In this document: positions 6,030 through 45,675 of the stretch, piece by piece | Position numbering within the stretch: position 1 is the stretch's first letter | Layout of the letters: every line of letters starts with the position of its first letter | From: Acetatifactor muris | Lineage (GTDB): Bacteria > Bacillota > Clostridia > Lachnospirales > Lachnospiraceae | Reading direction: 5' to 3' | NCBI GenBank assembly: GCA_023664365.1 | Contig: JAMPFR010000007.1 | Coordinates: forward strand, 1 to 64,000 | DNA length: 64,000 bases | Notes under the pieces: generated by a model | Told to the model about the DNA's origin: nothing | The model's database searches: none | Seen by the model: the letters and a program-made list of their open reading frames with translations, nothing else | Position numbers and translations under genes: made by a program

Positions 6030-8774
6030 TCAGACGATCTCTTCTACCAACTGCTCAAATTGCTCCGGCCCCATCAATACCTTTCTGGGCTTCGTTCCCT
6101 CGCCTTTATCCACAACGCCGTACTCACAGAGCTGATCCATGATTCGCGCGGCACGGTTGAATCCGATTTTCAAAAGCCTCTGCAGCGCGCCGATGGACGC
6201 TTTATCCTGCTCAATGATAAATCTGCCCGCCTTCTCGAAAAATTCATCCAAATCCGCGTCGCCGCCCCCGGAGCCGCCCACGCCGCTTCCTATATTCAAA
6301 ATTTTCTCTTCCACTTCCTCCGCATAGACATTGCCCAGCGCCTGGTTCTTCAGGAAATCCACCACATCCGAAACCTCCCTGTCGGATACAAAGGCTCCCT
6401 GAATACGGGCCGGCTTGGAATAGCCCTGGGGATAAAAGAGCATATCTCCCTTTCCCAGCAGCTTCTCCGCCCCGTTCATGTCAAGGATGGTACGGGAATC
6501 CACACCGCTGGAAACTGCAAATGCCACTCTGCTGGGCATATTTGCCTTAATCAGTCCGGTGATGACGTCCACACTGGGCCGCTGGGTGGCTATAATCAAA
6601 TGAATGCCTGCCGCTCTCGCCAGCTGTGCCAGACGGCAGATAGACTCCTCCACCTCCCCCGGCGAAACCATCATCAAATCGGCAAGCTCGTCCACAATAA
6701 TGACAATCTGGGGCATTTTTGCAGGCGCTTCCTCATCGCCGCCTTCCCGCATGGACTCCACCTTTTTATTATAGCCCTTCAAATCTCTTACATTAAAATC
6801 CGCAAATTTGCGGTAGCGATCCTCCATTTCAGACACGCCCCAGTGCAGCGCTGCGGACGCCTTTTTCGGGTCTGTCACCACAGGTATCAGCAGGTGGGGA
6901 ATGCCGTTATATACGCTTAACTCCACCACCTTCGGATCCACCATAATCAGCTTTACGTCATCGGGATGTGCCTTGTACAGAATGCTCATAATCAGCGTAT
7001 TGATGCACACCGACTTACCGGAGCCCGTTGCGCCTGCAATCAGCATATGGGGCATCTTTGCAATGTCCGCAACCACTGTCTGCCCGGCGATATCCTTGCC
7101 CACCGCAAAGGCAATGTTGGAGGGAAATTCCTTAAACTCTTTTGTCTCCAGCAAATCCCGCAGGGCCACCGTCATATTTTCCTTATTGGGCACCTCGATG
7201 CCCACCGCCGCCTTTCCCGGAATCGGCGCTTCAATACGGATGTCGGTAGCCGCCAGATTCAGTTTAATATCGTCTGCAAGCCCCACTATCTTTGACACCT
7301 TGACGCCTTGCTCCGGCTGCAGCTCATACCGGGTAACACTGGGCCCCTGACTGATATCCGTGACAGTCACTCTTACGCCGAAGGTGTTCAGCGTCTGCTG
7401 GAGGTGCATTGCCGTCTCCTTCAGTTCCCTGGTGGAATCTCCTGTAGCCGCCACACCCTTCTGCAGTCTGGACAGAGGGGGAAACATATACTTCTTTGGC
7501 GCTCTCTGCATATCCTTGACCGGCGGCGGGGACGCCGAAGGCCGCTCGGTTGCCCCGGAACGTTCCCCTGCTCCCTGACGGCCGAAGCCGGATGCCGCAT
7601 GTATCCGCCCGGCTTCCCCCTCATTACCTTCCTTATGGATACGGATTGCCTGCAAATCACTTTCATAGGCAGCAGGCATGGGCTCCGGCTCTTCCCACAA
7701 ATCATCCGCGGTATTTCCTTCCGGCTCCTCTGCCTCTTCCGGTTCCATATCGTTCAGGGATACCTGGTGCATACTTCTGATATGTACCTTTTCAAAGTCA
7801 AATCCTGCTGAAGAAGACGGCGTCCGTTCCTCTGCAAAACCCTCCGGCGCCTCTTCATACTCCTCGGAAAACATGATTTCATGTATATCATCCCGGTGCG
7901 TTTGCTCTTCCGGCTTCAGCAAGGTGGTATCCAGCATGACGCCGGAAACCTTTTTCTCCATGCGGAGAATTTTCTCGTTTTCTTTCGCCTCTGCCTTCAG
8001 CCTGCGCTGCTCTTCCTGCTCCTGACGTTTCTGCCGAGCGTTTTCCCTGCGGCGCTCTGCATCTTCTTTTCGGCGTCCTGCCTCTTCCCTGCGCTGTTCC
8101 GCAAGCTCTCTGCGGCGCTCCGCGTCTTCTCGGGAAAGCTCCCGCATACGGCTTCCGCCCTCCTTCACGCTTTTCAGCAGGGAGCGCTCCGTCACAAGAA
8201 TCAGACTTATCACGGCACAGAGCAGAACCACCAGTACCGTTCCGATGGTGCCCAGATAATGCTGTAAAAGGAAGCTTATGCTGCCCCCCAGGACTCCTCC
8301 GCCGTTCTTCGCGTCCCGGCAGCTCTCATAAATTGTCTTTACGCTGTAATCTGCCATTCCGGCAGTGCCGCCCACTATCAAATCGCATACTGCCCCCAGC
8401 ATGAGAAATAATACAAAACCCGCTGCCATCTTTCGCACCGCATTGGGATTCCCTTCATTGGCAAACCGAAAGGCTGCCGCAAGAAACAGGAGCACCGGCG
8501 CCGCATATGCGGTAAATCCGAATACACCAAAAAGGAAGCCGCTGACCGCGTCTCCCACAGGCCCGATAATACCGAAATTACAACAGAACAAAATAACCAT
8601 CAGTACAAAAAGCGCGATCAGCCCAATCTCATGGAACAGTGCGCCGTCTCCGGCAGACGTCTGCATATCCTCCGCCTTATTTCCTGTCTTCCTGTTCTGT
8701 CCTCCCGATTTTACGCTTCCGGAATTCTTTCTATTTTGTGAAGATGATGTCTTTTTGCCGTTAGAAGCTGCCAT
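6030..8774 (-). CDS. ftsK: DNA translocase FtsK/SpoIIIE
   Basis: The 914-residue protein has a basic N-terminus, four or five membrane spans (about residues 40-190) and a long charged linker rich in RRREEAERRRE-type coiled coil (200-275). The alpha-beta motor follows, with Walker A GATGSGKS near 583 and Walker [13 protein letters not shown] near 695, and a C-terminal gamma winged helix ([23 protein letters not shown]). It pumps chromosomal DNA through the division or sporulation septum, oriented by KOPS/SRS sequences read by gamma. The ATG follows a good sigma-A promoter at 8813-8841. In Bacillus the neighbour is tepA; here tepA lies 37 kb away. Confidence 0.96.
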
Positions 8775-8844: not shown

Positions 8845-9321
8845 TCATTTCTTTCCTTTCAGCACCCGCTTCACCTTTGCCGCCGCTTTTGACAAAAACG
8901 GCCGGGCAGGCCGAAGCCAAAGCCAGACAGCCGCCGGTATCCGGTAAAGGAGATTGCTTACGGAAAAGCATTTTCCCCTGCGCACCACCTGGCACAGAAT
9001 CCCTTTGATTTGTTCCGCCCGCAGCGGGCCTTCCACCTCGCTCTGATTATCCCCCACCATATAGAAGCCCTCCGGTTTCCGCTTCCAGATACGGTGCAGC
9101 ACCAGAATACTTCCCTCACGACGATAAAGCACTACATCCCCCCGCTTTAATTTCCTCGTCTCCACAGGAGCAATAACCGCCTCGTCCCTGCCGGGGACAA
9201 ACAGGGGATACATACTGTAACCCTGGGGATGAATCCGAATGCTTTTTCCTTCCGAAAGCAAAGCCTCTATATCCACGCCTTTTCTCCCGTCGCCCTTCTT
9301 AGCCGTCTCCTTTTCTTCCAT
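8845..9321 (-). CDS. S24/S26-family (signal peptidase I-like) serine peptidase
   Basis: The 158-residue protein contains the S26 nucleophile box GYSMYPL (Ser36), the strand RGDVVLYR (61-68) and VLHRIW (His76). It has a His where bacterial signal peptidase I has its catalytic Lys, as in the ER/SipW-type branch. There is no N-terminal membrane anchor; a hydrophobic, basic C-terminal part (about 120-158) may be membrane associated. Proteins of this small family are often found beside PqqD/HprK-like proteins and exporters in peptide or polysaccharide clusters. It lies downstream of the ABC exporter and the three leader-bearing genes, and it is a good candidate to cut their leaders, although that is inference. 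Confidence 0.75.
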   Translation of the reverse strand: MEEKETAKKGDGRKGVDIEALLSEGKSIRIHPQGYSMYPLFVPGRDEAVIAPVETRKLKRGDVVLYRREGSILVLHRIWKRKPEGFYMVGDNQSEVEGPLRAEQIKGILCQVVRRGKCFSVSNLLYRIPAAVWLWLRPARPFLSKAAAKVKRVLKGKK

Positions 9322-9368
9322 GATTGACCGTCCTGCCCCCTTGATTTATTGCGGATTTATCAAAAGTA

Positions 9369-9551
9369 CTATAACAAATATTGATACGCTTGATAATACC
9401 TGTTGATCTGTTCTCCGGTGCACGCAAGATTATGCTCCCCATGATAATCCTCCAACACTTCCTTACTGATTAATAACTCCGGTAATACACAAGCATTTTT
9501 CGGATCACTCATTGTGAGCCGGGTATATTGTATCGCTCTATCCAAAAACAT
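9369..9551 (-). CDS. Small hypothetical protein, possibly a gene remnant
   Basis: This 60-residue frame (MFLDRAIQYTRLTM...) reads like the C-terminal end of a longer soluble protein. The frame stays open upstream of the ATG for only about 15 more codons before a stop, and the ribosome site is poor. I recognise no family with certainty. It lies between the ABC exporter and the S26 peptidase. It could be a decayed gene or a genuine small protein; the AT-rich 120 bp upstream hold no other recognisable feature. Confidence 0.35.
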   Translation of the reverse strand: MFLDRAIQYTRLTMSDPKNACVLPELLISKEVLEDYHGEHNLACTGEQINRYYQAYQYLL

Positions 9552-9672
9552 CTTTTTTTGTCCGGATCCGCTGAAAATCTCAACGCTCGTTTAACTTCAT
9601 TTCCGATATTTACCATTTGCTGTACAAGACAAACCATTTTTCATCTAAAATAATCATTTTTTACATCTCCTC

Positions 9673-11439
9673 TCAGAAATTCCGTATCATCTCTTCGATC
9701 TCGCTCTCCTCAAGGCAGACGCACTGCCTGTCCCGTATGGCGTAAACTCTGCTGCACATACTTAAGACCGTGGGACGATGGGTCGTCAGAATGCAGGTAC
9801 GGGGATAGGAATCCTTCAGGATATTCTGCAGAACTTTTCGCTCTGTAGCCACATCCAGCGCCGAAGTCGCCTCATCCATCAGCAGAATGGGAGATTTCCG
9901 GATCAGCGATCTGGCTATGGACAACCGCTGGGCCTGGCCTTCCGAAAAGCCGCCGCCCCGCTCGCCTACTTTTGCGTTGATTCCGTCACCCAGCCTGCTC
10001 ACAAAGTCCCAGGCACAGGCCATCTTCAGGGCTTCCTCAATCTCCTCATCCGTGGCGTCCGGCTTCACGTTCCGCATGTTTTCCGCAATGGTACCTGAAA
10101 ACATGGTATTCCCCTGGGGCACATAAGAAAACAGCTTTCTGGTGGAGGGGCTCATCTCCATCCTGTCCTCTCCCGAAAAAATGCAAATGCTTCCCTCCTT
10201 CGGAGAAATCAGAGAAAGCAGCAGCCGCAGCATGGTTGTCTTCCCTTCCCCGGAAGGCCCCACCAGTGCAATAATCTCATGAGGATGGGCCTCAATGGAT
10301 GCGCCTGCAAAAACAGGATCGCCGCCGCGATAGGCATAGTCCACGTCCGTCAGCTGAAGGGACACCCCCTCCGCCCTGTGCCGTTCGCCAAACGCTGCCG
10401 CCTCCTCATCATGGCTGAAATCCTCCCGGGGCATTTCCACAATATCCATGAGCCGTCCTGCAGAGGTAGTCAGGCTGATGACGGAAGGCACCAGAGAAGT
10501 CAGATTATGCAGCGTTCCCGTCAGCGTTCCGGACAGGCTTAAGAATAATGTCATCGTACCATAGTCAATGGCGCCGCTCCACACCCGGTAAATGCCCCAG
10601 CCGTATGCCCCGTAGGAAACCAGCATGGATACCACAGACAACAGCAGCGACGTTCCCATGGACATCCGCTGGAACTCCAGCCGCATACTGATATAATCGG
10701 CCTGAAGACGCTTCAGCCTGCCTGTATAGAAGGGAATCAGATCAAAAGCTTTAATGGTCTGAATATTGGAAAATGTCTCCTGGTTAAAGCCGGACATCTT
10801 TGCCCCCATGGCGGCGCTGCGCTTGTTATTGTTCACCATGCGCCGCATAAGCGTCCTGGAAAGCAGCAGGCTCACCGGCATGCCTAAGAATGCAAAAACG
10901 GCGAAGGACACATCATTGGCAACCACCACCACAAAGGCGCTGATAAAGCGGAACAGGTAGATAATCAGGTTCGGGACAAAGTTTAAAACACCGTTGGAAA
11001 TATTGGAGGCGTCGCTGCTCCAGCGGGTCAGCAGATCCCCGGTGTGGTACTGGGTCAGAGACTCCCAGTCCGTCACCAGTATCTTGGAAAAAATGTCGGA
11101 CTTAATTTCCGAATCCACCCGCATACCAATCCAGGAAGAGGCATAATTGGCAATCTGGTTTACAATCGTGCTGCCTATCCCCAAGCCTATCATGGCCGCA
11201 AAGGTCTTCACCACTGCTCCCGCCTGAAAACCCGTGATGATATTTACCAAATCTCTGGAGACAAAGCTGGACAGCAGCGACACCACCGTCCCCACCAGCC
11301 CCAACAGGGTATAAAAAATCATGGCAAGCCAATAGTGGCGGGCATATTCATAGATCCACCGGGTCTGCCGCAGCATCTCCTGAATGCGTCCGGCCTTGAT
11401 TCTTCCCATATAAAATTTTACCCGTTCCCGAACGCTCAT
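9673..11439 (-). CDS. ABC exporter, fused permease and ATPase
   Basis: The 588-residue half transporter has six membrane spans in the first 330 residues and a C-terminal ATPase: Walker A VGPSGEGKTT (about 394-403), signature FSEGQAQRLS (near 500) and Walker B ILLMDEATSALD (near 522). The signature is slightly divergent (SEGQ in place of SGGQ). No N-terminal C39 peptidase domain is present, so it cannot itself cleave double-glycine leaders. It lies directly downstream of three small leader-bearing genes, separated by a hairpin, and upstream of an S26-type peptidase. Export of those products is the natural guess. Multidrug or lipid export is the alternative. Confidence 0.85.
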   Translation of the reverse strand: MSVRERVKFYMGRIKAGRIQEMLRQTRWIYEYARHYWLAMIFYTLLGLVGTVVSLLSSFVSRDLVNIITGFQAGAVVKTFAAMIGLGIGSTIVNQIANYASSWIGMRVDSEIKSDIFSKILVTDWESLTQYHTGDLLTRWSSDASNISNGVLNFVPNLIIYLFRFISAFVVVVANDVSFAVFAFLGMPVSLLLSRTLMRRMVNNNKRSAAMGAKMSGFNQETFSNIQTIKAFDLIPFYTGRLKRLQADYISMRLEFQRMSMGTSLLLSVVSMLVSYGAYGWGIYRVWSGAIDYGTMTLFLSLSGTLTGTLHNLTSLVPSVISLTTSAGRLMDIVEMPREDFSHDEEAAAFGERHRAEGVSLQLTDVDYAYRGGDPVFAGASIEAHPHEIIALVGPSGEGKTTMLRLLLSLISPKEGSICIFSGEDRMEMSPSTRKLFSYVPQGNTMFSGTIAENMRNVKPDATDEEIEEALKMACAWDFVSRLGDGINAKVGERGGGFSEGQAQRLSIARSLIRKSPILLMDEATSALDVATERKVLQNILKDSYPRTCILTTHRPTVLSMCSRVYAIRDRQCVCLEESEIEEMIRNF

Positions 11440-11455
11440 GCCGTACCCTCTCGAA

Positions 11456-11494
11456 AAAACAGCATTACCTCACATAAGGGGGTAATGCTGTTTT
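11456..11494 (-). terminator. Hairpin terminator/attenuator ahead of the ABC exporter gene
   Basis: A 14-bp perfect stem (AAAACAGCATTACC / GGTAATGCTGTTTT) with an 11-base loop is followed on the minus strand by a run of T. It lies between the last small leader gene (stop at 11526) and the exporter ATG at 11439. It could end most transcripts from the small genes while letting a fraction read into the exporter, which would give high precursor and low transporter expression. The stem is nearly symmetric, so it could also act on the other strand. Confidence 0.75.
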
Positions 11495-11525
11495 AAAGTT
11501 TTTCAAATGTCGGTTCAATGTGCAA

Positions 11526-11963
11526 TCAGTCAAATCCGCCCTGAACATTTACAGCATGAGTACAGGTTATGGTTGCACTCTCACAGGTAATTAACTTGGT
11601 TGTAGCTTCATCAGCAGCTTTTACCCACACCTTATATGTCATGTTGTCACCGGAATTATATGCGTTTGCATGTAATTGACGGGTAACAGTAACCTGCGTT
11701 CCGCTGAACGTACACGGAAATTCCGAATATGCATCCGTCACTGATGTGCTAAAAGTCAATGAGACTTTCGTTTGTGATGAAATATGTACCACATCCGTGG
11801 AATGCTTACAACTGATTTCAAAAACATGATGACTGCCGTTCCAATCTTGGACAGATTTTGCCTCCACGGTCCAACAGTCAGTACTCGTTTCTCCACTGGC
11901 CGTATATACGCCTTCTGCAACATCCTCATTTGCCAACACTACCGGCTTCTCATAATCTGTCAT
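11526..11963 (-). CDS. Leader-bearing small protein 1 of 3 (predicted exported beta-sandwich)
   Basis: The 145-residue protein starts MTDYEKPVVLANEDVAEGVY followed by TASGETSTDCW. The first 23 residues are nearly identical in the next two genes. The rest (about 120 residues, rich in T, S and V) looks like an all-beta domain. Its SGTQVTVTRQLHANAYNSGD stretch resembles the pattern of family-2 carbohydrate-binding modules, but that is a visual impression. Three Cys lie in the last half and one directly after the leader. The leader is hydrophilic, so it is not a Sec signal peptide. Ribosome site GGAAGGGG. Nearby exporter and S26 peptidase suggest leader-directed processing. Confidence 0.75.
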   Translation of the reverse strand: MTDYEKPVVLANEDVAEGVYTASGETSTDCWTVEAKSVQDWNGSHHVFEISCKHSTDVVHISSQTKVSLTFSTSVTDAYSEFPCTFSGTQVTVTRQLHANAYNSGDNMTYKVWVKAADEATTKLITCESATITCTHAVNVQGGFD

Positions 11964-12000
11964 CTTTATCCCCTTCCTTCTCTATGCGCTACCAATATTT

Positions 12001-12426
12001 TTACCATGTATGCTGTCCGCAGTCATGGTTGCAGATTAATTGTGCACCCGAAACAGAAAGCCCGGCATCAGATTCCACAATAACATCTCCCAAGCCGATA
12101 TTATCATAAGCATTATTATGATAAGCATAATCGATGGAAATACTTGAGGTTCCATCCCCTCCTGCCAAAGCTCCGTTAGAGCCTTTGTAGGTTACTGCCT
12201 GGTTAAAATAAAGCACAAGCGTCTGCTTTCCGCTGTGATGATTATCTCCTGCCGCATGTACCGCATTTACCTGAATCCGAAAATCTCCTCTTCCGGTTTC
12301 AGGAGTCTGATGAATATACGCCGTAACCGAATAGCAATCTGCTCCCACTCCTGCACCGCTTGCCGCATATACCCCTTCCGCGACATCTTCATTTGCCAGT
12401 ATTACAGGCTTTTCATAGTTCAACAT
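12001..12426 (-). CDS. Leader-bearing small protein 2 of 3 (predicted exported beta-sandwich)
   Basis: The 141-residue paralogue begins MLN-YEKPVILANEDVAEGVY-AASGAGVGADC. The tail is predicted beta-rich and is loosely alignable with protein 1. Shared features are a Cys just after the leader, an alternating polar/hydrophobic core, the NNAYDNIGLGD segment in place of NAYNSGD, and a C-terminal C-N-H motif in place of C-T-H. Ribosome site GGGAGAGGG, seven bases ahead of the ATG. It lies 37 bp upstream of protein 1 on the same strand. Function unknown; a displayed adhesin-like or carbohydrate-binding module is one possibility. Confidence 0.75.
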   Translation of the reverse strand: MLNYEKPVILANEDVAEGVYAASGAGVGADCYSVTAYIHQTPETGRGDFRIQVNAVHAAGDNHHSGKQTLVLYFNQAVTYKGSNGALAGGDGTSSISIDYAYHNNAYDNIGLGDVIVESDAGLSVSGAQLICNHDCGQHTW

Positions 12427-12498
12427 TTTAACCCTCTCCCTTCTTCCCTTACCATTCTCTTCAGGATTTTAAACACAACGCATAAAATCTCCAAACCA

Positions 12499-12849
12499 TT
12501 ACATATTCCAATCGGTTACAGGATCCTCCGGCTTATAACCCTTTTTCTCCCATGAAGGCTTTCTGTTGCCATTGTCAACATCATAAGAAGCCGCTTCACC
12601 CGAATCAATATAATGGGTTAATAAACCGCAGCCGTTATCCGTGTTTGCAGGACATCCAAGACATGCAAACTGCTGCTTATAACCGCGGGTTGTTCCGCCC
12701 CAATTAGAATAATCCGGTGCCTGCCAAACACCCATCATATATTGACTGTCACATTTAAGTCCGTTACCTGAAGTATCTCCGCTCGCCGCATATACCCCTT
12801 CTGCCACGTCCTCATTCGCCAGTATTACCGGCTTTTCATAATTTATCAC
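12499..12849 (-). CDS. Leader-bearing small protein 3 of 3 (Cys-rich tail)
   Basis: The 116-residue protein uses a GTG start, supported by GGAGGGG six bases upstream. It begins with the same leader (MIN-YEKPVILANEDVAEGVY-AASG). Its tail differs from the other two: aromatic and glycine rich, with a cluster of four Cys (LKC, ACLGC, NGCG) and a charged end (WEKKGYKPEDPVTDW). Conserved leader with unrelated tails is the arrangement expected of precursors that share one processing or export machine. It is the first gene of the presumed transcript. Confidence 0.75.
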   Translation of the reverse strand: MINYEKPVILANEDVAEGVYAASGDTSGNGLKCDSQYMMGVWQAPDYSNWGGTTRGYKQQFACLGCPANTDNGCGLLTHYIDSGEAASYDVDNGNRKPSWEKKGYKPEDPVTDWNM

Positions 12850-13651: not shown

Positions 13652-13672
13652 AAGCAATTCTCCTTTATATAT

Positions 13673-18280: not shown

Positions 18281-18359
18281 AAATTTCTGCCTTTCACTGT
18301 TTTTTATTTTAACTTCAAGCATACTATGCAAATGCCGGCATTTTTTCTCTTCGCAAGCC

Positions 18360-19574
18360 CTATTTATCCAGCCCCATCTGCTGCAGCAGTCTGCTGCGGT
18401 TTCCGGCATTGCGCAGAATATCCTTCACCCTGCCCCGGTTCAGCTTTCGATTATTTCTCAGGAATACCACCAGCGTAATCACCCACAGCCCCGGCCACAG
18501 AATCACATAACGGGATGTTTTCGGATGATTCATTTTCATCTGGTAATGAAACTCCTTAATGTAGGCCCACAGACTGTTCTCCTGCACAATGACCATCCGA
18601 TCCCTGTCGGCTTTTCCGAATTCCTCCGCCGCAAACACATCCTGCAGAAATTCTTCCGCCAGTTTTCTGTCCCGGCTGCGTCCCATGGGCAAATCGCCTC
18701 TGAGTCCCAGAAATTCCTTGCAGACCATGGTGATCGTCTCAGAGAATTCCCTGACGTTACACTCCGCTGCAAGCTTCAGAAATTCAGGGACAACTTCCCG
18801 TGCCTCATCCCTGTTCCAGAATACTACCCAGTCGCAGAGCAGCTTCAGTCCGAATCCCGCCCGCAGAAAATGCTGCAGCATGTGAAGCAGCAGCTGCAGT
18901 GCCTGAAAGGGTTCGGCAAGCATGGGAAGGCTGAAGCCCATACAATCTCTGTATTCCTTTGCTGCGAAGCAGGCCGGGAGCAGCCGCTCCATGCACCGGT
19001 TAATCCTGCTGTCCCGAAAAGGCTCTGCCAGCATGGTATGCAGTTCCAGATCTATGCCGTCCCCGGAGTTGAATACCAGATGATGATTTGCATGCTGGTT
19101 CTCCCCCACCGCAAAGCCCTTTTCTGTCAAAAGCTCTGTGGCGGCCTCCAATCTGTCCCCGGGAATCAATACATCCACATCTCCGGATTTTCTAAGCTCG
19201 GGAACCGGATATAATTCCGCCACCCCGCTGCCCTTCAGCACCAGCACAGGCACCCCTGCTGCCTCCAGCAGCCTTACCAGATGACAGGTCAGAAACAGCA
19301 GATGATAACTCTGCCTGACTGTGGTGCGTGAAATACTCTCCACCCACTTCACATCTGCGGCATCCAAAGCAACATCCGGAACTTCACCCTGCCGTTCTTC
19401 GCACAATATTCCATACAGCAGCGGAAGCACCTTATGCTGCTGCGCCGTTCGGATGACCTCTTTCATATCCGCCTGCCGGTACAGCGCCGCCGATTCCCGG
19501 GAAGGCTCACCATTCAGTGCCTGACTGAGAAGCAGACACAGAAGTCTCTGTTCTTTACTCAGCTTTGTGTTCAT
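18360..19574 (-). CDS. Nucleotidyltransferase family protein (NTP_transf_5 type)
   Basis: The 404-residue protein carries the NTP_transf_5 core VLVLKGSGVAELYP...RKSGDVDVLIPGDR (about residues 115-145), with the acidic GDVDVLI pair expected of the polymerase-beta fold. Helical flanks include the LYGIL...Q-HKVLPL region typical of the family. Members sit in lasso-peptide, exopolysaccharide and PqqD/HprK-like clusters, where they are suspected to modify a peptide or carrier. The ATG overlaps the stop of the upstream glycosyltransferase by four bases (ATGA). The substrate is unknown. Confidence 0.75.
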   Translation of the reverse strand: MNTKLSKEQRLLCLLLSQALNGEPSRESAALYRQADMKEVIRTAQQHKVLPLLYGILCEERQGEVPDVALDAADVKWVESISRTTVRQSYHLLFLTCHLVRLLEAAGVPVLVLKGSGVAELYPVPELRKSGDVDVLIPGDRLEAATELLTEKGFAVGENQHANHHLVFNSGDGIDLELHTMLAEPFRDSRINRCMERLLPACFAAKEYRDCMGFSLPMLAEPFQALQLLLHMLQHFLRAGFGLKLLCDWVVFWNRDEAREVVPEFLKLAAECNVREFSETITMVCKEFLGLRGDLPMGRSRDRKLAEEFLQDVFAAEEFGKADRDRMVIVQENSLWAYIKEFHYQMKMNHPKTSRYVILWPGLWVITLVVFLRNNRKLNRGRVKDILRNAGNRSRLLQQMGLDK

Positions 19575-20659
19575 CGCTTCTCCTTCTTATTACGGGATTC
19601 CGTTATCCTCCCGTCCACATCCAGCTTTCTCAGCAGCGCGATTCCCAACACAAAGAGACCGTAGGCATGCATGTGAAACAGCAGCGCCGCCCCCTGAATC
19701 ATAACCCGCCAGGAAAAGGCGGAAATCTCCCTTATATACTTTCCCCCGGCCAGATCCGCCATGGCCTCTCTGACAAGGGAATTCTTCCCGTACTTCTTCA
19801 TCACACGGATGCTCTCCCGTATACCGTGCTTTTTGAACTGCAGCTCCTGCTTCACCAGGAAAAAGCTGCCGAAAAAGAAATGCAGATCCGTCCAGTCTCC
19901 ATAGTCCCCCTCAATCCCCCGGCGGCCCAGAAATTCCTTAAAATCAGCCGCTATTGCCACCCAGACAGGCATCAGGTTCTCCTTATAGCGGAAGGTCACC
20001 GACTCCGTATTGACCCGGTACAGATAGATGCTGTCTTCAATAAAGGCATAGCGGGGATGATATACATAGCAGTCCATATTGTGTGCCTTGTCCTGGGTAA
20101 AGGGATATGCGCAGCATCTCAGATCATGGGCGTCCAAAAAAGCCTTTTTGTACAGCTGTCCCCAGTTATGCGCCAGGTGTCCGTACATATAAAAGCCCTT
20201 AAACCGAAAGTCCACCGTCTCTGTATACTTTCCGCCATGGAGATGATGACGGTTCACCTGGCGGCAGCCGGAAGCATTAAACCGACGGTAACAGCCCACC
20301 GTAATATCCGCCTGCTCCTGCTCTGCCTTCTCCGCCAGCAGACGGATTGCCCCGGCTCCGTCCAGGCAGTCGTCCGAATCAATGAAAAAAATATATTTGC
20401 CATGAGCTGCCGACATCCCCGTATTGCGGGCCAGTCCCAGGCCCATGTTCTCCTGATGGATTACGCTGACATTCTCATGCGCGGCGGCATAACCGTCGCA
20501 AAGGGCCGGACAATTGTCCGGAGAGCTGTCGTCAATAAGCAATATCTCCAATGCCGGATAATCCTGCCGCAAAATACTCTGCATACAGTCATCCAGATAT
20601 TTTTCCGTCTTATATACCGGAACGACAATACTGACTAACGCTTCCTTCTTTTCCGCCAT
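19571..20659 (-). CDS. Glycosyltransferase family 2
   Basis: The GT-A fold is clear: LVSIVVPVYKTEKYLDDC at the start, LLIDDSSPDNCPAL, and FFIDSDDCLDG (the DxD-type motif) near residue 90. A C-terminal 200 residues without membrane spans follow. It probably adds a sugar to the exopolysaccharide repeat unit. I chose the ATG at 20659 because GGAGAG lies six bases ahead and because the longer reading to 20692 would begin inside the -10 box of its promoter. Confidence 0.88.
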   Translation of the reverse strand: MAEKKEALVSIVVPVYKTEKYLDDCMQSILRQDYPALEILLIDDSSPDNCPALCDGYAAAHENVSVIHQENMGLGLARNTGMSAAHGKYIFFIDSDDCLDGAGAIRLLAEKAEQEQADITVGCYRRFNASGCRQVNRHHLHGGKYTETVDFRFKGFYMYGHLAHNWGQLYKKAFLDAHDLRCCAYPFTQDKAHNMDCYVYHPRYAFIEDSIYLYRVNTESVTFRYKENLMPVWVAIAADFKEFLGRRGIEGDYGDWTDLHFFFGSFFLVKQELQFKKHGIRESIRVMKKYGKNSLVREAMADLAGGKYIREISAFSWRVMIQGAALLFHMHAYGLFVLGIALLRKLDVDGRITESRNKKEKR

Positions 20660-20690
20660 GGCAACTCTCCACTCCTTCGTAATATCAACC

Positions 20691-20719
20691 ATTATACTCT
20701 CTATTTTCCAAAAAGTCAG
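20691..20719 (-). promoter_or_regulatory. Promoter of the GT2/nucleotidyltransferase pair
   Basis: On the minus strand CTGACT (20719-20714), 17 bases, then TATAAT (20696-20691). It lies in the 145-bp divergent region shared with the plus-strand gene at 20805 and fixes the GT2 start downstream, at 20659. Confidence 0.6.
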
Positions 20720-25306: not shown

Positions 25307-26506
25307 ATGATACAAAGCGCCGATTATATGCTCTGTGAACTGAACGGAATCCCCTATCTCCTGCCCTTCGGCCAGGGTGTGGCCGACCTGCGGCGGGGCG
25401 TCCGGCTCAATGAGACGGGAGCTTATGTGTGGAAGCTGCTGGCTTCGGAAACCTCCGAGGAAAATATTGTCAATCTCTGTGCCTCCCACTTTCAGGCCCG
25501 CAGTGATGAATTTTCCCGGCTGAAAACCGACATATCCCTGTTTTTAGACCGGCTCCGTATTCTGGGAATCCTGAAGGAGGCTTCCGGGGAACCGGGTTCT
25601 GAAGCCGCAGACCTGTACCTGCGTATCGGCGGGTTGACCCTTGCCCTTCTGGGCCCCCGGGAATACTTTTCAAATGAGTTTATGCCTTTTTCCGTAAAAT
25701 CCCCCGACATGGACGCCGGTGGCACGGACACTGGTATCCATGCCGCCGATCAACGGATCCGGCTTCGTCCTTTTTCTCCTCCCACCCATCCTCTGGGACG
25801 GGTTCTCCAGCGCAACAGCCAGCTGCTTGTGCTGGAGAACGAAACCGGATATATCCTGTGTTTTCCCGGGGCGGAAAGTCCCCTGGAAGCATGGCTCTCC
25901 CGGGACGGTTCGGATGTACTTATCTTTGCCGCCGGACAGCCTACGGACATTTTTGTAAAAGACATCTTCCATGCCATCCGCCTGTGCTTTCTCTTCCTTG
26001 CCCAGCAGAAGGGCATGTTTGCGCTGCACTCTGCCTCTTTCCTGTATCGGGAGCATATCTGGCTGTTTTCGGGGCACTCCGGCGCAGGGAAAAGCACTCA
26101 TACCAATCTCTGGAAGGAACTTATGCAGGTTCCCCTGATCAACGGCGATCTGAATCTTCTGGAGCCCGGCGGTTCCATGCCCACGGTGCACGGCCTGCCC
26201 TGGTGCGGCACTTCCCAAATTGCCACCCCCGGCTCCTGGCCACTGGGCGGAATCATCTTTCTCCGGCAGGCTGCTCACAATGAAGTCATACAGCTTCCTG
26301 CCGATACCCGACAGCTGCTGATTGCCCAGCACCTGATTTCCCCTGTCTGGACCAGGGAACAAACAGCTTTAAACCTGAATGCAGCAGAAACGCTCTGCCG
26401 CCGGGTTCTTGTCTGCCGCCTCTGCTGCACCAAAGAGCCGGAAGCGGTAGATACTATCCGCGCCGCTTTGGATCAATGTCCGGATCAGTGTCCGGATAAA
26501 TGCTGA
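25307..26506 (+). CDS. PqqD-domain / HPr kinase-like fusion protein
   Basis: Residues 1-90 resemble a PqqD peptide-chaperone domain (PFGQGVADLRRGVRLNETGAYVWKLL, then a helical stretch ending FLDRLRILGIL). The rest matches HPr-kinase-like P-loop proteins found in lasso-peptide and EPS clusters: FSGHSGAGKSTHTNLWKE near 253-270 and INGDLNLLE. Such kinases phosphorylate a peptide Ser in the paeninodin-type lasso clusters; here the target is unknown. AAAGGAAC precedes the start. Its last 22 bp overlap the end of the convergent flippase gene. Confidence 0.75.
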   Translation: MIQSADYMLCELNGIPYLLPFGQGVADLRRGVRLNETGAYVWKLLASETSEENIVNLCASHFQARSDEFSRLKTDISLFLDRLRILGILKEASGEPGSEAADLYLRIGGLTLALLGPREYFSNEFMPFSVKSPDMDAGGTDTGIHAADQRIRLRPFSPPTHPLGRVLQRNSQLLVLENETGYILCFPGAESPLEAWLSRDGSDVLIFAAGQPTDIFVKDIFHAIRLCFLFLAQQKGMFALHSASFLYREHIWLFSGHSGAGKSTHTNLWKELMQVPLINGDLNLLEPGGSMPTVHGLPWCGTSQIATPGSWPLGGIIFLRQAAHNEVIQLPADTRQLLIAQHLISPVWTREQTALNLNAAETLCRRVLVCRLCCTKEPEAVDTIRAALDQCPDQCPDKC

Positions 26507-29174: not shown

Positions 29175-30854
29175 TCACGGGGTCTCGTCATTACCGCCGA
29201 AAAATTCCTGCCGCAGCTGCTCCCGCAGCTCCTCCGTCCCTCCCAGCGTCAACGTGCCCACCCGATAGCCGAGATTACCAGGCTCCTGCTCATTGCCAAG
29301 CAGTATTCTGTTCCCCGACAGGACATCGGTAACGGAGAAATAAACCTCCAGTTCTCCCTGGGGCAGCCCCCCCAGAGGCAGCTCCCAATACAGCGTCATC
29401 TGCTCCTGAGACCCCGTGCCGCCTGCAAGCCCTCTTATATCCTGCCCTGCATCCAGATTGTAGGCATACTCCCGTCCCTGCGCCCTGTCATACAGCACCA
29501 GCTTCACCTGCGCTTCCCGGTAGACAGGGGCAAAGCCTACATTTTGCAGCGTGATTCCCGCGGTCAGCCTGTCTGTCTTCCAGTCATAGTCCAGGGCCGC
29601 CTCCCGCAGTACCAGGCGATACCCCAGATGACGTTCCACATAGGTCAGCCCGTCCATACCGTCAAAGCAGCCCTCTTCCCGGACAACTGTCTGCCGCCAC
29701 TTTTCCAGCACCTTGCCGTCATAGTCCCGGTTCAGGTAGGTGATATGCATGGCCCGCATATCCTCCAATGCGTTTTCCAGGTCATTGTACTCATTATCGA
29801 TAATCACCTCGCCCCCGTTGGGCGCCGTTCTGCACAAAGCCTCCTGAAAGGAAAGCTCCTCACGGCGGCTCCACTGGGAAAAGGGCTTTTCCGCCGCCTG
29901 GTCTGCGGTACTGTAGGTTCCGCAGTCGGTAGCGCTCCCCAGCATACCGTCATTGAACAGCCCCAGCCTTGCCAGGGGATCTTCCTCCTCCGCTCCGGCC
30001 CGATCCGGATCTGTCGTCCCCGTGATAATGCGCCACTGTGCAGGCGTGCGCACTGCCATATAGGTAGTTTCCCCCACAGAGACAGATAATTTCCCCGCAA
30101 GAGCCTGTATTTCCTCCGTACTCAGATATTTGGAATTGTTCATCTCGCCGTAATTTCCCACAAACAGTCCCTGCACCAGAAAAATCCGATCCTCGTACTT
30201 TTTCAGCAGATCCGACACCTGCTCCATATGTCTTAAAATCACATCCAGGCTGTCCGGCTCCGACTGCAGATTTTTCCCGTCCCAGTCATACAGGAAACGC
30301 AGAATCAGCTGCTTATCCACTCCTGCCAGCGCTTCCAGAAGCTTATCCAGGTTTTCCAGTCCTTCCGCCGAAATTTCTCCCTTTCTGAAATTTCTGAGAT
30401 TCACCTCAATCAGGGTAAGCCCGCCCTGATCCTCCGCAAACCGCCCGGCAATATTCGCCTTATACTCGGCGGCAGAGTCTGTTATATAAAAACCGTGCAT
30501 ATGATAAAAGCCCCGGTTTGGGTTGTTCAGCTCTTTTTCGGACTCCGTAAAGGTAAAGCTTTCCGTTGTGCCGCTTCCGTGCCCTCTGGCCTCCAGATAC
30601 TGATCCAACAGCCTTATGGCTCCCCGGGACAATGCGGAATGCCGCCCGGCCAGGTCAATATGCTCTCCGGTCAGCTCCTCCAGTTCTCCCGACAGTTCCC
30701 CGTATTCTGCGGAAAGCTCCGAAAGCCTCCGGGAAGCCTCCTCCGCCTGGCCTGTACGCTGGTACAGCGTCCAAGCTGCTCCTCCCAAGAGTCCTCCCAA
30801 AAGCAGCAGCAGACAGACAATTAACAATCTCCCTAAAACACGCTTCATTCTCAC
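29175..30854 (-). CDS. DUF4874/DUF4832 protein, membrane anchored (copy 1)
   Basis: The 559-residue protein has an N-terminal membrane helix (RLLIVCLLLLLGGLLGGAAW), a short coiled coil (residues 40-75) and then the DUF4874-DUF4832 pair: LNNPNRGFYHMHGFY, QLILRFLYDWDGKN, FLVQGLFVGNYGEMNNSKYL. A beta-rich C-terminal domain follows. The first domain looks like a TIM-barrel glycoside hydrolase, so an outward-facing EPS-modifying or degrading role is plausible but unproven. A second copy lies on the other side of the 840-residue membrane protein. ATGA overlap with that gene indicates coupling. Confidence 0.78.
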   Translation of the reverse strand: MRMKRVLGRLLIVCLLLLLGGLLGGAAWTLYQRTGQAEEASRRLSELSAEYGELSGELEELTGEHIDLAGRHSALSRGAIRLLDQYLEARGHGSGTTESFTFTESEKELNNPNRGFYHMHGFYITDSAAEYKANIAGRFAEDQGGLTLIEVNLRNFRKGEISAEGLENLDKLLEALAGVDKQLILRFLYDWDGKNLQSEPDSLDVILRHMEQVSDLLKKYEDRIFLVQGLFVGNYGEMNNSKYLSTEEIQALAGKLSVSVGETTYMAVRTPAQWRIITGTTDPDRAGAEEEDPLARLGLFNDGMLGSATDCGTYSTADQAAEKPFSQWSRREELSFQEALCRTAPNGGEVIIDNEYNDLENALEDMRAMHITYLNRDYDGKVLEKWRQTVVREEGCFDGMDGLTYVERHLGYRLVLREAALDYDWKTDRLTAGITLQNVGFAPVYREAQVKLVLYDRAQGREYAYNLDAGQDIRGLAGGTGSQEQMTLYWELPLGGLPQGELEVYFSVTDVLSGNRILLGNEQEPGNLGYRVGTLTLGGTEELREQLRQEFFGGNDETP

Positions 30855-37270: not shown

Positions 37271-38761
37271 TTACGCCCCCCCCATTTTCTTTTTTTCCCT
37301 CTGCACTGCCGGCTGCTTTACATTTCCGCCCTTCACATAGACCAGATTGGAGGGCTTTCTTCCCTTTCCCTTTTTTAAAATACTGCCATTGCAGAAGATA
37401 TGCACATCCAGCGTTTTCTCCATCCTGCGCAGACGGTGGTACGCCACTATCCAGCCTGCAAAGGATCCTGCCACCACGCCCATCCCGAACCACAGCGGAC
37501 TTTGGCGGCTGGCATAGATACTTCCCAGCAGAGTCACTCCGAAAAAGGTGACGGACGTCATCATAGCCCCTGTCATATCGTTGAAATAATACTGAAAAAT
37601 AATGGCGGCATACATGATAAACAAAATGAAGTAGCCCGCGGCCAGACAGGGATAAATCCTCATAATCTGTCCGCCGAAGCCTATCTTGGGAAGCAGAATG
37701 AAGCAGATGAAGAAAATCACCACAGACACAATGAACTGCAGCCGGGCCAGGTTCATCAGTTCTTCCGCGAGCTGCCCGAACATCATTTTCTTGGCGTCCT
37801 GAATATCCGCGCCCCTGCCGCCTATAACCGCCTCGGAATATGCCTTGTATCTCTCGTGAAAGTGCATTTCCACCCTGGAAATAAAAATCATGCTTGCGGT
37901 GATATTGGTGAACATGGCAAGACAGGTAGCCATATCATAAGTGGGCATGCAGACAAACCCTCCCTTCACCTCCATACGCATATCCGTAGACCAGAAGACA
38001 AAATTATGGACATACATCCCCACAGTGTAAAGAGTGTTTGTAATTGTCAGCTGCCAGTGGCTCTTAAAATACTCCAGCACCTCCCTGTATTTGCCGCTGT
38101 TATGCCGGAAGTAGCTCTTTATCAGCGCCAGCTCCAGACAGCTGATAACCAGAAAGCCCACCGTCAGCGAAACCACAATACTGTAAATCACATTTACCCT
38201 GAACAGCTTTACCAGCACAAAGGACAGCAGAATTGCCGCCGCCATGCCTATCAGGAAAAACACGGAAATTTTCTTATAGTCCTTGCATATGGACAGGTAC
38301 AGCATGGAATAAAACACCATCACAAGGCTCATATAACCGCAGTAGCTGATAAAGACGAATCCCGGCTCCACCCCCAGCAGATACTCCCGGATGCAGAAAG
38401 GGATTCCCACAATGCAGCTCAGCACAATATTCAGCATCAGCCCCACATAAAAGCAGGGCAGAATATCATCGTAGGTCTCATTGTAAATCACATCCGAAAG
38501 ATACCGGGACAGCACCGCGTTAAAGGGCGCCGCCGTAGTAAGGGAAAAAATGAAAATATACAGCACCGTACAGGAACACAGCTCTCTGGAAGCATAATCC
38601 AGCTTTGAATACCCCAGTATCTGCTGCATGACAATCAATGCGCCGATGACAAGAAACATGGGCGCAATGGTGATAACCATACTGTAACCGAAGCCTATCA
38701 GATTAGTGGTAATGGTATTCTTGCTGAATATCCGGTTTAATCTTACGCCTATGCCTGCCAT
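37271..38761 (-). CDS. pelG: Pel polysaccharide transporter PelG
   Basis: The 496-residue protein with about 12 spans starts GIGVRLNRIFSKNTITTNLIGFGYSMVITIAPM, the characteristic PelG N-terminus. It keeps the family length and the LYASRELCSCTVLYIFIFSLT-type core. PelG is a MATE/PST-like inner-membrane protein that works with the glycosyltransferase PelF to make and move Pel. AGGAGG precedes the ATG, and the gene begins inside the last 13 bp of pelF. A C-terminal cytoplasmic basic tail (KKGKGRKPSN...QREKKKMGG) is present. Confidence 0.9.
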   Translation of the reverse strand: MAGIGVRLNRIFSKNTITTNLIGFGYSMVITIAPMFLVIGALIVMQQILGYSKLDYASRELCSCTVLYIFIFSLTTAAPFNAVLSRYLSDVIYNETYDDILPCFYVGLMLNIVLSCIVGIPFCIREYLLGVEPGFVFISYCGYMSLVMVFYSMLYLSICKDYKKISVFFLIGMAAAILLSFVLVKLFRVNVIYSIVVSLTVGFLVISCLELALIKSYFRHNSGKYREVLEYFKSHWQLTITNTLYTVGMYVHNFVFWSTDMRMEVKGGFVCMPTYDMATCLAMFTNITASMIFISRVEMHFHERYKAYSEAVIGGRGADIQDAKKMMFGQLAEELMNLARLQFIVSVVIFFICFILLPKIGFGGQIMRIYPCLAAGYFILFIMYAAIIFQYYFNDMTGAMMTSVTFFGVTLLGSIYASRQSPLWFGMGVVAGSFAGWIVAYHRLRRMEKTLDVHIFCNGSILKKGKGRKPSNLVYVKGGNVKQPAVQREKKKMGGA

Positions 38762-43497: not shown

Positions 43498-45675
43498 TTA
43501 TCCGTTTGCAACAATACTGCTCTCATACCCAAGCTCCGCAAAACGCCGGATAACGAACTCCGCGTCCCCTCCATTGGTATTTGCAAGCAGGGTGTACAGC
43601 CTGCCATCCTCCAGTGTGCCGATATAGTCCGACTGGCGGAGCTTGCCGGTTAAAAGCTTTGCCGCCTCCATATAATCCTTTTCTTCCACCTGTACCGCCA
43701 GCAGGGTACACTCTGTCAGACCTCTGTTTCTGGCTGTCAGGTACGCCTTTACCAGCGTCTGGAAAGCTTCTGTCTTCAGCGTCTGCGTCCCTGCCACATA
43801 GCGCTGCTCCTCCAGCGCCACCAGATACCGATTGGCCCGCAGCACGGCGTTTTGAATCAACGCGCTGATGACTACCAGCTGATTGGCCTGTCCCAGCGTC
43901 ATACGCTCCCAGGGAATACCCCAAACCATAATAATCATCTGCATCTCTTCATTTTCAAAAATGGCGTTTGCCATCAGCGGATAATGCTCCTCCATCTTCC
44001 GGTTGATAAATACCTTCCGCTCCACCAGCGTCTCGTACAGCTCACCCATATTCGTATACTGGATGGAACTGCCCAGCTGGCGCGCCTTCTGGGAGGTAGA
44101 GGAAAACAATCTGGCGTACGCCCGGTTTGACACCGTATAGATGGCTACATCCTTGCTTTTCAACAGCTTGCCCAGCATTTCTGCAGCATAAAACAACACT
44201 TCTTCAGGGCTGTACTGATCCAGCGCCGAGGTGATACTGTAGATCTTTCCCACGCTGTCGTTCTGGTTGACTATCTGCGTCTCCAGGGCTGCCTTTACAC
44301 GCACGTTGCTGCTGTTGATATCCTGGATGTCCACAAGCTGCATATCCAGAAACTCTCTTTCGCTTTTGCTCTCCTGCTTCAGCTTGGTAATCTGGTCCCT
44401 CATATAGCCCACCACCAGTCCCAGAATAAACAGCTGCGCTATCCACACATATGTATTGGCGTCCAGCATGACCTCAAACGCCGATCGGGTATACATCTGC
44501 CGGAAACAGTAACCCGCCACCGAAAGCACCGCGGAAAGAGTCGCCTGATGCTGGCCGTAAACAATGGCAAACAATAAAACATACAACAGATAAAAGTCCA
44601 GATTGGCAAAATATTCACTGCCCACCGCCCGGTTGTTCAGCATGAAGAAGGGAATAAACAATATGACATTTTCCGCAAAGGGCAGCAGGGTTTTAAACAG
44701 CCAGCCCGCCTTGTCCCTAATCCTGTCCCCCAGGGGCTTGTCTTCTTCTCCCCCGTTGAGGAACAGATGGGATTTCCTTTTCATCTGCGCCGTAATCTTT
44801 TTTACCGTATCCTGCACCTCGCAGAAAAACGGATTCCCGAACTCGCTCTCATATAAGACGTCGGAAAGGATGGCCCTGCTCTCCTGCCCCTGTACGGGAA
44901 TCAGCTCCAGCGGCTCCTCCCATACCTGACATATCATATCCGCCAGGGCAGTCTCCGTCAGTTCCCGCATGGAAGACAGATTATAGACGGAGCTTCTGTG
45001 TTCCCGGCACATGGCCAGACGGTGTATAAATTCCACTGCATCCGTCACATAGAGAAGGGAAAATACATGGTTCTCCCCCACGGTAATGCGTTTACTCTCC
45101 AGCGCCTCCAGACACATACGGCTGCAGATATCCCTTGCATCCCTGCGGCTCTCCGGAATACCGTACACATGATCCAGCCGCAGTACAATAATGTCCTTCC
45201 CACAGCTTTTCCGATAGTTTTCACACATTTCCTCGCCCTGGGACCACACCATGGCAGGAATGCCTTCCGGCGTCACAGGCTCCGTTTCCGATATGTTCTC
45301 CGGATAGCTGCCCCCGTACACATCCTGAGTGGAAAGATACAGGAACCTGCCATCCGTATACTGGGAATAGGCCATAAGTATGTTCATCAGGCTGGCGGAA
45401 AACCGCACCGCTTCCCGCTCCACGCCATCGCCCGTCCATTTGAAATTCGTATCGTATGCCCCCATAAAAACAGTAAGCTCCGGCCTGACGCTCTCAAAAA
45501 TCTCCTTCAGGCTGTCGCTTTCATAGGGGAAATTATATTTCTCAAATATGTTCTGATAGGAAGCCTTTCCATAGCGGTCTCCCGTCAGCAGAGATATTCT
45601 GTGCCCCTCTTTATTCAGTTTGATAATCAGATTATTAATCAGATTACCGGCCCCGCCAATCAGCAATATATTCAT
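43498..45675 (-). CDS. pelD: PelD-like c-di-GMP receptor fused to an SDR domain
   Basis: This 725-residue fusion has four parts: an SDR-like domain (1-300, NILLIGGAGNLINNL), about four membrane spans (335-440), a GAF domain (470-620) and a GGDEF-like domain. The last keeps an inhibitory-site RxxD (LRQSDYIG), while the GGDEF motif is replaced by TLEDG, so it should bind c-di-GMP without making it. In PelD, this binding switches on polymer synthesis. In the SDR domain the usual YxxxK is replaced (VWSQGEEM), so catalysis is doubtful. No GGDEF cyclase lies in the window. SDR-PelD fusions are known in Gram-positive pel operons. Confidence 0.82.
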   Translation of the reverse strand: MNILLIGGAGNLINNLIIKLNKEGHRISLLTGDRYGKASYQNIFEKYNFPYESDSLKEIFESVRPELTVFMGAYDTNFKWTGDGVEREAVRFSASLMNILMAYSQYTDGRFLYLSTQDVYGGSYPENISETEPVTPEGIPAMVWSQGEEMCENYRKSCGKDIIVLRLDHVYGIPESRRDARDICSRMCLEALESKRITVGENHVFSLLYVTDAVEFIHRLAMCREHRSSVYNLSSMRELTETALADMICQVWEEPLELIPVQGQESRAILSDVLYESEFGNPFFCEVQDTVKKITAQMKRKSHLFLNGGEEDKPLGDRIRDKAGWLFKTLLPFAENVILFIPFFMLNNRAVGSEYFANLDFYLLYVLLFAIVYGQHQATLSAVLSVAGYCFRQMYTRSAFEVMLDANTYVWIAQLFILGLVVGYMRDQITKLKQESKSEREFLDMQLVDIQDINSSNVRVKAALETQIVNQNDSVGKIYSITSALDQYSPEEVLFYAAEMLGKLLKSKDVAIYTVSNRAYARLFSSTSQKARQLGSSIQYTNMGELYETLVERKVFINRKMEEHYPLMANAIFENEEMQMIIMVWGIPWERMTLGQANQLVVISALIQNAVLRANRYLVALEEQRYVAGTQTLKTEAFQTLVKAYLTARNRGLTECTLLAVQVEEKDYMEAAKLLTGKLRQSDYIGTLEDGRLYTLLANTNGGDAEFVIRRFAELGYESSIVANG

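What the first reader, a model, noticed from the sequence alone, without database searches (positions are those of the whole stretch)
8845..12849. Three small genes with one near-identical leader and variable tails, next to an ABC exporter and an S26 peptidase
Seen: three consecutive genes (12849-12499, 12426-12001, 11963-11526) share the first 23 residues almost perfectly (EKPVILANEDVAEGVY plus AASG or TASG), then diverge. The leader is hydrophilic and not a Sec signal. Downstream on the same strand are an ABC exporter without a C39 domain and an S26-type peptidase with Ser/His catalytic boxes. Known: constant leader, variable cargo plus dedicated exporter and protease is the logic of RiPPs and peptide-export systems. 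Inferred: a leader-directed export system for small folded or Cys-rich proteins, possibly displayed on the surface.
Basis: partly seen in the sequence, partly recalled or inferred. Interest (0 to 1): 0.88.

Follow-up and report, generated by a model that had tools for sequence, protein, structure and literature searches.

The report
Leader-tagged small proteins beside Pel genes
Some gut bacteria put one fixed leader of 24 residues in front of small, probably exported proteins of many kinds, and keep the genes that should read, mark, export and cut it close to genes for a biofilm polysaccharide; the machinery looks like a new branch of a peptide family described in 2026.

Summary
Three genes share a leader (20 of 24 columns invariant) kept by selection at the protein level. 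The leader precedes 63 proteins of 11 sequence clusters. In a family sample of 348 genomes, 19 of 20 leader genomes have the fusion and 0 of 328 others do at E<1e-110; 19 of 20 have PelG against 40 of 328, mostly within 16 kb. The gene set matches the linear polyphosphorylated peptides (LPP) of Popov et al. 2026 (PMC13381572): SpI-like leader protease, RRE, HprK-like kinase, NTP transferase, MsbA-like pump, YxxPxVL leader. Differences: RRE and kinase are fused, the leader tail reads AEGVYAASG, not FETxxS, and cargos look like folded domains, some CBM2-like. By homology the cut is probably AEG/VYAASG with the Ser as phosphosite, not after AASG. Verdict: real; a new variant of a known kind; binding, cutting, phosphorylation and export are untested.

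The parts
12499..12849 (-). leader cargo gene 1 (116 aa), Cys-containing 'type C' cargo; leader codons 12849-12778
   Evidence: four Cys invariant in the 11 type C proteins aligned
12001..12426 (-). leader cargo gene 2 (141 aa), 'type A' cargo; leader codons 12426-12355
11526..11963 (-). leader cargo gene 3 (145 aa), 'type B' cargo, in the same sequence cluster as gene 2; leader codons 11963-11892
11456..11494 (.). terminator-like hairpin (16 pairs, near-palindromic; the scan lists it on the + strand) between the cargo genes and the ABC gene
   Evidence: 7 terminator-like sites found, 4.2 expected; this one has the most pairs
9673..11439 (-). MsbA-like ABC exporter, no C39 domain found (LppD-like)
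   Evidence: best NCBIfam match TIGR02204 MsbA_rel, 244.6 bits, below its cut-off 780.4; ABC of this kind in 37 of 47 leader loci
8845..9321 (-). S26-type, archaeal/SipW-like signal peptidase homologue without a clear membrane helix; presumed leader peptidase (LppS-like)
25307..26506 (+). PqqD (RRE) domain fused to an HPrK-like P-loop domain; presumed leader reader and kinase (LppB+LppK-like)
   Evidence: (PF05402 36.1 bits, cut-off 23.4)
18360..19574 (-). NTP_transf_5 nucleotidyltransferase (LppN-like)
   Evidence: PF14907, 146.7 bits; in 26 of 47 leader loci
19571..20692 (-). family-2 glycosyltransferase overlapping the NTP_transf_5 gene; a GT2 domain is fused to NTP_transf_5 in L038
26485..28035 (-). 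flippase-like membrane protein (no Pfam match at E<=0.001; name from appearance), relatives in 22 leader loci
29175..30854 (-). DUF4874/DUF4832 protein; DUF4832 is a described accessory of Gram-positive pel loci; relatives in 21 leader loci (second copy 33380-34777)
37271..38761 (-). PelG
   Evidence: PF16933, 487.3 bits
38749..40710 (-). PelF-like glycosyltransferase (DUF3492)
   Evidence: the name PelF rests on position and recall
43498..45675 (-). epimerase-headed PelD-like protein
   Evidence: Epimerase domain only; PelD naming follows the architecture in passages of PMC7112168
45703..45990 (-). free-standing PqqD domain just upstream of the pelD-like gene
   Evidence: PF05402 47.5 bits

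Best explanation
This is a branch of the LPP type of RRE-guided leader system, in Lachnospiraceae-type gut bacteria, turned into a sorting route for small proteins. The PqqD domain of the PqqD-HPrK fusion binds the YxKPxVL part of the leader as an extra beta strand. The fused kinase phosphorylates Ser23 of AASG, just inside the retained N-terminus, and the NTP transferase may add to that phosphate. The S26 protease, with the RRE presenting the precursor, cuts the leader, most likely at AEG/VYAASG. The MsbA-like ABC pump exports the cargo. The cargos, one type of which resembles carbohydrate-binding modules, then act outside the cell with the Pel-type exopolysaccharide made by the neighbouring genes. 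Shown here: the conserved leader, its near one-to-one occurrence with the fusion, the shared cassette, the Pel linkage. Inferred, from homology with the experimentally studied LPP system and from gene context: binding, phosphorylation, cutting, export and glycan binding.
For: Leader and fusion: 19 of 20 leader genomes have it and 0 of 328 others at E<1e-110, Fisher p=2e-30, not corrected for kinship. In the genus, 17 of 18 leader genomes and 0 of 10 leader-free genomes tested have it. Of 47 leader loci, 23 hold all five parts and 37 the ABC gene, in many gene orders. The PqqD domain is over Pfam's cut-off, and its nearest solved structures are lasso and LPP RREs: TbiB1 5v1u/5v1v E=1.3e-4, PbaB1 9x90 E=0.007, LppB 9x8z E=0.023 (the last two named by the paper). 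Popov et al. (PMC13381572; sections 6-9, 11, 12 read) show for the same kinds of genes that YxxP is needed for RRE binding, that LppS cuts together with LppB after T-1, and that LppK phosphorylates core Ser3. MAFFT puts E17 opposite the E, and G18 opposite the T, of FET in LPP-like precursors of L106 and L112; G18 is Gly in 59 of 63 leaders. PelG: 19 of 20 leader genomes, 40 of 328 others, p=2.5e-15, again uncorrected; same contig in 26 genomes, median gap 11.4 kb. CBM_2 is over its cut-off for one cargo, 26 against 24 bits, and just below it for a second.
Against: No binding, cutting, phosphorylation or transport was measured here, and the LPP sections I read do not test export. The kinase half has NGDLN in 15 of 16 aligned proteins (NGDIN in one) where an Asp pair would be expected from the HKDD motif described for PadeK-type kinases, so its activity is uncertain. 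Three genomes with a divergent leader (G008, G032, G156) have no linked S26 gene; none of this type was found in G032 (85% complete) or G156, while G008 has one on another contig, so there something else cuts or no cut is needed. The same three lack PelG. G206 has three leader genes but no fusion (68% complete). 40 leader-free genomes have PelG, so Pel does not need the cassette. The commonest cargo cluster (36 of 63) has no Pfam match over cut-off in the 7 members scanned and no PDB match better than E=0.34. The structure tool was off, so no fold was checked.
Confidence: 0.68

Rival explanations
1. The cassette makes bacteriocin-like or signalling RiPPs: the cargos are toxins or signals aimed at other bacteria, and the Pel linkage only reflects a shared genomic island.
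For: RRE, kinase and leader logic are those of RiPPs. In two sister genomes (L065, L066) the type A cargo core is 51% identical while its leader is 100% and fusion, S26, NTPt5 and type C cargo are 96-99%, a pattern of fast diversification that conflict systems also show.
Against: I recognised no immunity gene among the 30 widest-spread neighbour families printed, but did not search for one specifically. Cores are 56-140 aa and many look like folded domains. PelG goes with the leader in 19 of 20 genomes.
Confidence: 0.15
2. The cargos stay inside the cell; the MsbA-like ABC moves a lipid-linked glycan for the polysaccharide genes, and the leader is a docking tag for a cytoplasmic kinase circuit.
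For: The best NCBIfam match of the ABC is MsbA_rel, below cut-off. NTP_transf_5, flippase-like and DUF4832 genes are frequent neighbours. The S26 protein has no clear membrane helix.
Against: The ABC gene is the partner found most often with leader genes (36 of 37 cassette genomes). In the sister pair the diverged type A cargo goes with a diverged membrane half of the ABC (75-77% DNA identity, most of the locus 92-99%), though three other pairs do not show this.
Confidence: 0.14
3. The shared N-terminus is a structural part of one protein family, not a leader.
For: 36 of 63 cargos form one sequence cluster.
Against: The same N-terminus precedes 11 clusters that blastp at E<=1e-3 does not join, and conservation falls off after S23-G24.
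Confidence: 0.03

Closest known systems
Linear polyphosphorylated peptides (LPP; LppA/B/K/S/D/N), Popov et al. 2026, PMC13381572
   Same: SpI-like peptidase, RRE, HprK-like kinase, NTP transferase, MsbA-like transporter; one to three precursors of 35-200 aa with a conserved N-terminus and variable C-terminus; YxxPxVL motif; position in polysaccharide loci.
   Different: RRE and kinase are one polypeptide here; the leader tail ANEDxAEGVYAASG replaces HQxIxFETxxS; cores of 56-140 aa look like folded domains, the LPP studied has a 45-residue core; the neighbours are Pel genes. The terms Lachnospir, Clostridi and Pel polysaccharide do not occur in that paper's main text; its supplements were not seen.
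Paeninodin-type phosphorylated lasso peptides (PadeK; pseudomycoidin PsmK/PsmN)
   Same: HPrK-like kinase with a nucleotidyltransferase and an RRE reading [Y/W]xxP (passages and sections).
   Different: Lasso cyclase and B2 protease were not recognised in the cassette; PadeK acts on a C-terminal Ser, which these cargos do not share.
Gram-positive Pel loci (pelDEADAFG with accessories), PMC7112168
   Same: PelG, PelF-like, epimerase-headed PelD-like and DUF4832 proteins in the window.
   Different: The passages I saw name CotH, a polyphosphate polymerase, DUF4956 and DUF4832 as accessories; PqqD does not occur in the text, and I saw no leader genes or S26.
Radical-SAM clusters with PqqD, HPrK-like kinase and S26 (L104, L106, L107, L108, L112)
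   Same: Same chassis with YxKP precursors; L106 and L112 also hold FET..S precursors of the LPP kind.
   Different: Radical SAM enzyme by Pfam in L104, L106 and L108, by eye in L107 and L112; short precursors; PqqD and kinase are separate genes.

Membership tests
LPP family | archaeal/SipW-type SpI-like peptidase gene | tested here: met
   best match TIGR02228 (below cut-off), SipW model weak; Ser and His invariant in 16 of 16 aligned; in 31 of 47 leader loci. Direct comparison with LppS not done
LPP family | discrete RRE | tested here: not met
   PqqD domain present but fused to the kinase; a free PqqD stands beside the pelD-like gene, its role unknown
LPP family | HprK-like kinase | tested here: inconclusive
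   P-loop and His invariant, one Asp; only weak profile links: ScmC, PEPCK and, for a sibling protein, HprK_rel_A
LPP family | NTP transferase and MsbA-like transporter | tested here: met
   PF14907 over cut-off; TIGR02204 best NCBIfam match but below cut-off; NTP_transf_5 seen in 26 of 47 leader loci
LPP family | leader consensus YxxPxVLxHQxIxFETxxS | tested here: not met
   YxxPxVL part met, tail differs
LPP family | polyphosphorylation of a core Ser and RRE-dependent cut by SpI | not testable with these tools
   needs bench work; S23 is a candidate
Lasso peptides | macrolactam cyclase and B2 protease beside the precursor | tested here: inconclusive
   not recognised among the 30 widest-spread neighbour families printed; no search with their models was run
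Sec-exported proteins | hydrophobic N-terminal signal | tested here: not met
   no hydrophobic core in 63 of 63 leaders by Kyte-Doolittle; no signal-peptide predictor was at hand
C39 peptidase-type peptide exporters | N-terminal C39 domain on the ABC protein | tested here: not met
   no C39 model among 19 Pfam matches at E<=1 for the window protein

The most novel reading that the evidence does not exclude
An RRE, otherwise known for guiding peptide modification, here guides a general secretion route: a fixed leader sends diverse folded glycan-binding proteins, encoded in the cassette and elsewhere in the genome, out of the cell, and the phosphate (or a sugar-phosphate added by the NTP transferase) on the N-terminal Ser couples them to the Pel-type matrix.
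Probability: 0.3. Interest if true: 0.87.

Novelty: new variant of a known kind. Interest (0 to 1): 0.63.

Why it matters
The roles of LPPs and paeninodins are unknown, and the LPP authors only raise biofilm formation as an untested idea. Here the same kind of machinery goes almost one-to-one with one defined polysaccharide gene set and with cargos of which one type resembles carbohydrate-binding modules, which gives a testable function. If right, it also adds a leader-directed export route for folded proteins in gut bacteria, and a natural RRE–kinase fusion in which reading and marking of the leader can be studied in one protein.

Tried and rejected
Peptide exporter with a C39 domain: none found. 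Kinase acting on a C-terminal Ser as in paeninodin: cargo C-termini share no Ser. Cargo folds by sequence: PDB profile searches of types A/B and C gave best E 0.34 and 0.27, taken as chance. Leader outside the family: no convincing hit in 24 genomes of other families (four weak hits, one looked at, L054, and judged unrelated); among 295 order-level genomes the one non-family hit (G501, E=0.009) was judged chance. The genome-contig scan gave 3 loci. Fusions at about 1e-59 in G083 and G109 have no leader gene in their fetched loci; by eye the G109 one lacks the P-loop and sits among housekeeping genes. Literature searches: searches did not show the LPP paper; one search did. Papers seen as passages only: PMC12710340, PMC7470986, PMC9266682, PMC7533575, PMC7112168, PMC7112194.
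Full report
Observation. Three consecutive minus-strand genes at 12849-12499, 12426-12001 and 11963-11526 begin with M-x-[ND]-YEKPV[IV]LANEDVAEGVY[AT]ASG; 20 of 24 columns are invariant and the rest of the proteins diverges. Over 21 leader codons the three pairs differ by 8, 8 and 10 synonymous and by 0, 2 and 2 nonsynonymous codons, so the sequence is kept as protein. Downstream lie an ABC protein in which no C39 domain was found and an S26-type protease related to archaeal/SipW signal peptidases, below the curated cut-off. A 16-pair hairpin (11456-11494) separates the cargo genes from the ABC gene.

Two further parts lie outside the given coordinates: at 25307-26506 (+) a PqqD domain (PF05402, 36.1 bits, cut-off 23.4) fused to a P-loop domain, and at 18360-19574 (-) an NTP_transf_5 protein (PF14907, 146.7 bits). 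In relatives these often stand beside the leader genes. Of 47 leader loci (48 less L088, judged chance), 23 hold leader, ABC, fusion, S26 and NTP_transf_5; 6 lack only NTP_transf_5; 4 have leader, ABC and fusion; 5 have smaller sets, some on short contigs; 9 have the leader gene alone. Six of these nine are in genomes with the fusion elsewhere (G005, G033, G082, G094, G089, G364); three are in G206, a 68% complete genome in which no fusion was found. Cargos encoded in trans fit a routing tag. Gene order and strand vary widely.

Distribution. Among 37 same-genus genomes, own included, 17 have the leader, counting G008 at E=0.005 because of its neighbours. In a family sample of 348 genomes the leader is in 20 (19 at E<1e-6, plus G156 at 0.001). 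The fusion at E<1e-110 is in 19 genomes, each one of those 20, Fisher p=2e-30. Kinship is not corrected for, but the 20 span 18 genera. Two more genomes, G083 and G109, have weaker fusions at about 1e-59 and no leader hit. Within the genus 17 of 18 leader genomes and 0 of 10 leader-free genomes tested have the fusion; the exception G001 has its leader genes on a 9.4-kb contig. Among 295 order-level genomes convincing leader hits were confined to this family.

Leader and cargo. 63 leader proteins fall into 11 clusters by their cores. E17, S23 and G24 are the same in all 63; these residues were part of the pattern that placed the boundary, but no leader hit failed it. Cargo types: A/B (36 proteins, window genes 2 and 3), C (11 proteins, four invariant Cys, window gene 1), a CBM2-like type of three (one over the Pfam cut-off, one just below, one not scanned), a 56-62 aa Cys-containing type of three, and others. 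Leaders are acidic and not hydrophobic.

The closest known system. My last literature search found Popov et al. 2026 (PMC13381572; I read abstract, outline, passages and sections 6, 7, 8, 9, 11 and 12, not the supplements). They define linear polyphosphorylated peptides by the same five kinds of protein and by precursors of 35-200 aa with a constant N-terminus, consensus YxxPxVLxHQxIxFETxxS. They show RRE binding through YxxP, cutting by the SpI-like LppS after T-1 that needs the RRE, and phosphorylation of core Ser3 by LppK. Two of my PDB matches for the PqqD domain, 9x8z and 9x90, are their structures. My phylum search with the fusion profile, made before I knew the paper, led to loci with FET..S precursors near PqqD, HPrK-like, S26 and ABC genes (L106, L112). 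So the cassette works like this system and is a branch of its kind, although two defining features, the discrete RRE and the FETxxS tail, are not met.

How it differs. RRE and kinase are one protein. The leader tail is AEGVYAASG. The LPP product they studied has a 45-residue core; cores here have 56-140 residues. Aligning the leaders with LPP-like precursors puts E17 and G18 opposite E and T of FET, the residues before the LppS cut. G18 is Gly in 59 of 63 (otherwise Ser, Ala or Asn) and A16 is Ala in 50 of 63, which also suits a signal-peptidase-like cut. I therefore predict AEG/VYAASG, with S23 as phosphate acceptor, at about 0.55; a cut after AAS or ASG remains possible. The kinase half has an invariant P-loop and His but only one Asp where a pair would be expected, so its activity is likely but not certain.

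Pel. The window carries PelG (487 bits), a DUF3492/PelF-like glycosyltransferase, an epimerase-headed PelD-like protein and two DUF4874/DUF4832 proteins; DUF4832 is a described accessory of Gram-positive pel loci (passages of PMC7112168). PelG is in 19 of 20 leader genomes and in 40 of 328 others (p=2.5e-15, uncorrected). In the same genus 15 of 17 leader genomes and 0 of 10 leader-free ones have it. In 26 genomes both are on one contig, median gap 11.4 kb, 23 of 26 within 16 kb; in the window it is 24.5 kb. In L048 the leader gene lies 0.2 kb downstream of pelG on the same strand. The three leader genomes without PelG (G008, G032, G156) have a divergent leader and no linked S26; near G156's leader gene stand GH31, GH43 and CotH proteins. 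This favours an extracellular, glycan-related role, but 40 PelG genomes lack the leader.

An unexpected detail. In two sister genomes, G397 and G072, most of the locus is 92-99% identical in DNA, but the type A cargo core falls to 52%, one stretch beside the type C gene to 53% and the membrane half of the ABC gene to 75-77%, while the type A leaders are identical in protein. This is one pair. It suggests that cargo cores are replaced behind a fixed leader and that the pump may change with them; three other pairs do not show the pattern in the ABC.

Verdict. The system is a new variant of a known kind. Interest is moderate to high because it ties an orphan RiPP machine to a defined polysaccharide gene set and to possible glycan-binding cargos. 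A claim that this branch is not in print rests on searches of an open-access library only.

Noticed in passing
L065 about 6773-8169 and 10684-10883 against L066: In sister genomes the type A cargo core and the membrane half of the ABC gene are strongly diverged while most of the locus is 92-99% identical; possible joint replacement of cargo and pump.
   Followed up: partly
window 45703-45990 (-): A second, free-standing PqqD domain precedes the pelD-like gene; free PqqD matches lie on the cassette contig in several relatives too.
   Followed up: partly
window 13065-13657 (-): HicB/HicA-type toxin-antitoxin pair directly upstream of the cargo genes.
   Followed up: no
L104, L106, L107, L108, L112: Clusters with PqqD, a radical SAM enzyme (Pfam in three, by eye in two), YxKP precursors, HPrK-like kinase, S26 and, in four of five, an ABC gene; the four precursors scanned match no NCBIfam model at E<=0.1.
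   Followed up: partly
L114 9246-10442 (-): A PqqD-HPrK-like fusion whose P-loop seems to be gone, among housekeeping genes; maybe a reader put to another use.
   Followed up: no
L076 9666-10046, L077 9961-10353: Two leader cargos of G206 form a cluster of their own, with no cassette in the fetched stretches; they look beta-grasp-like by eye only.
   Followed up: no
window 16700-18409 (-): Large protein, AAA-type ATPase by eye (no family call), next to NTP_transf_5; a 94% identical copy lies between NTP_transf_5/fusion and the leader genes in L034.
   Followed up: no
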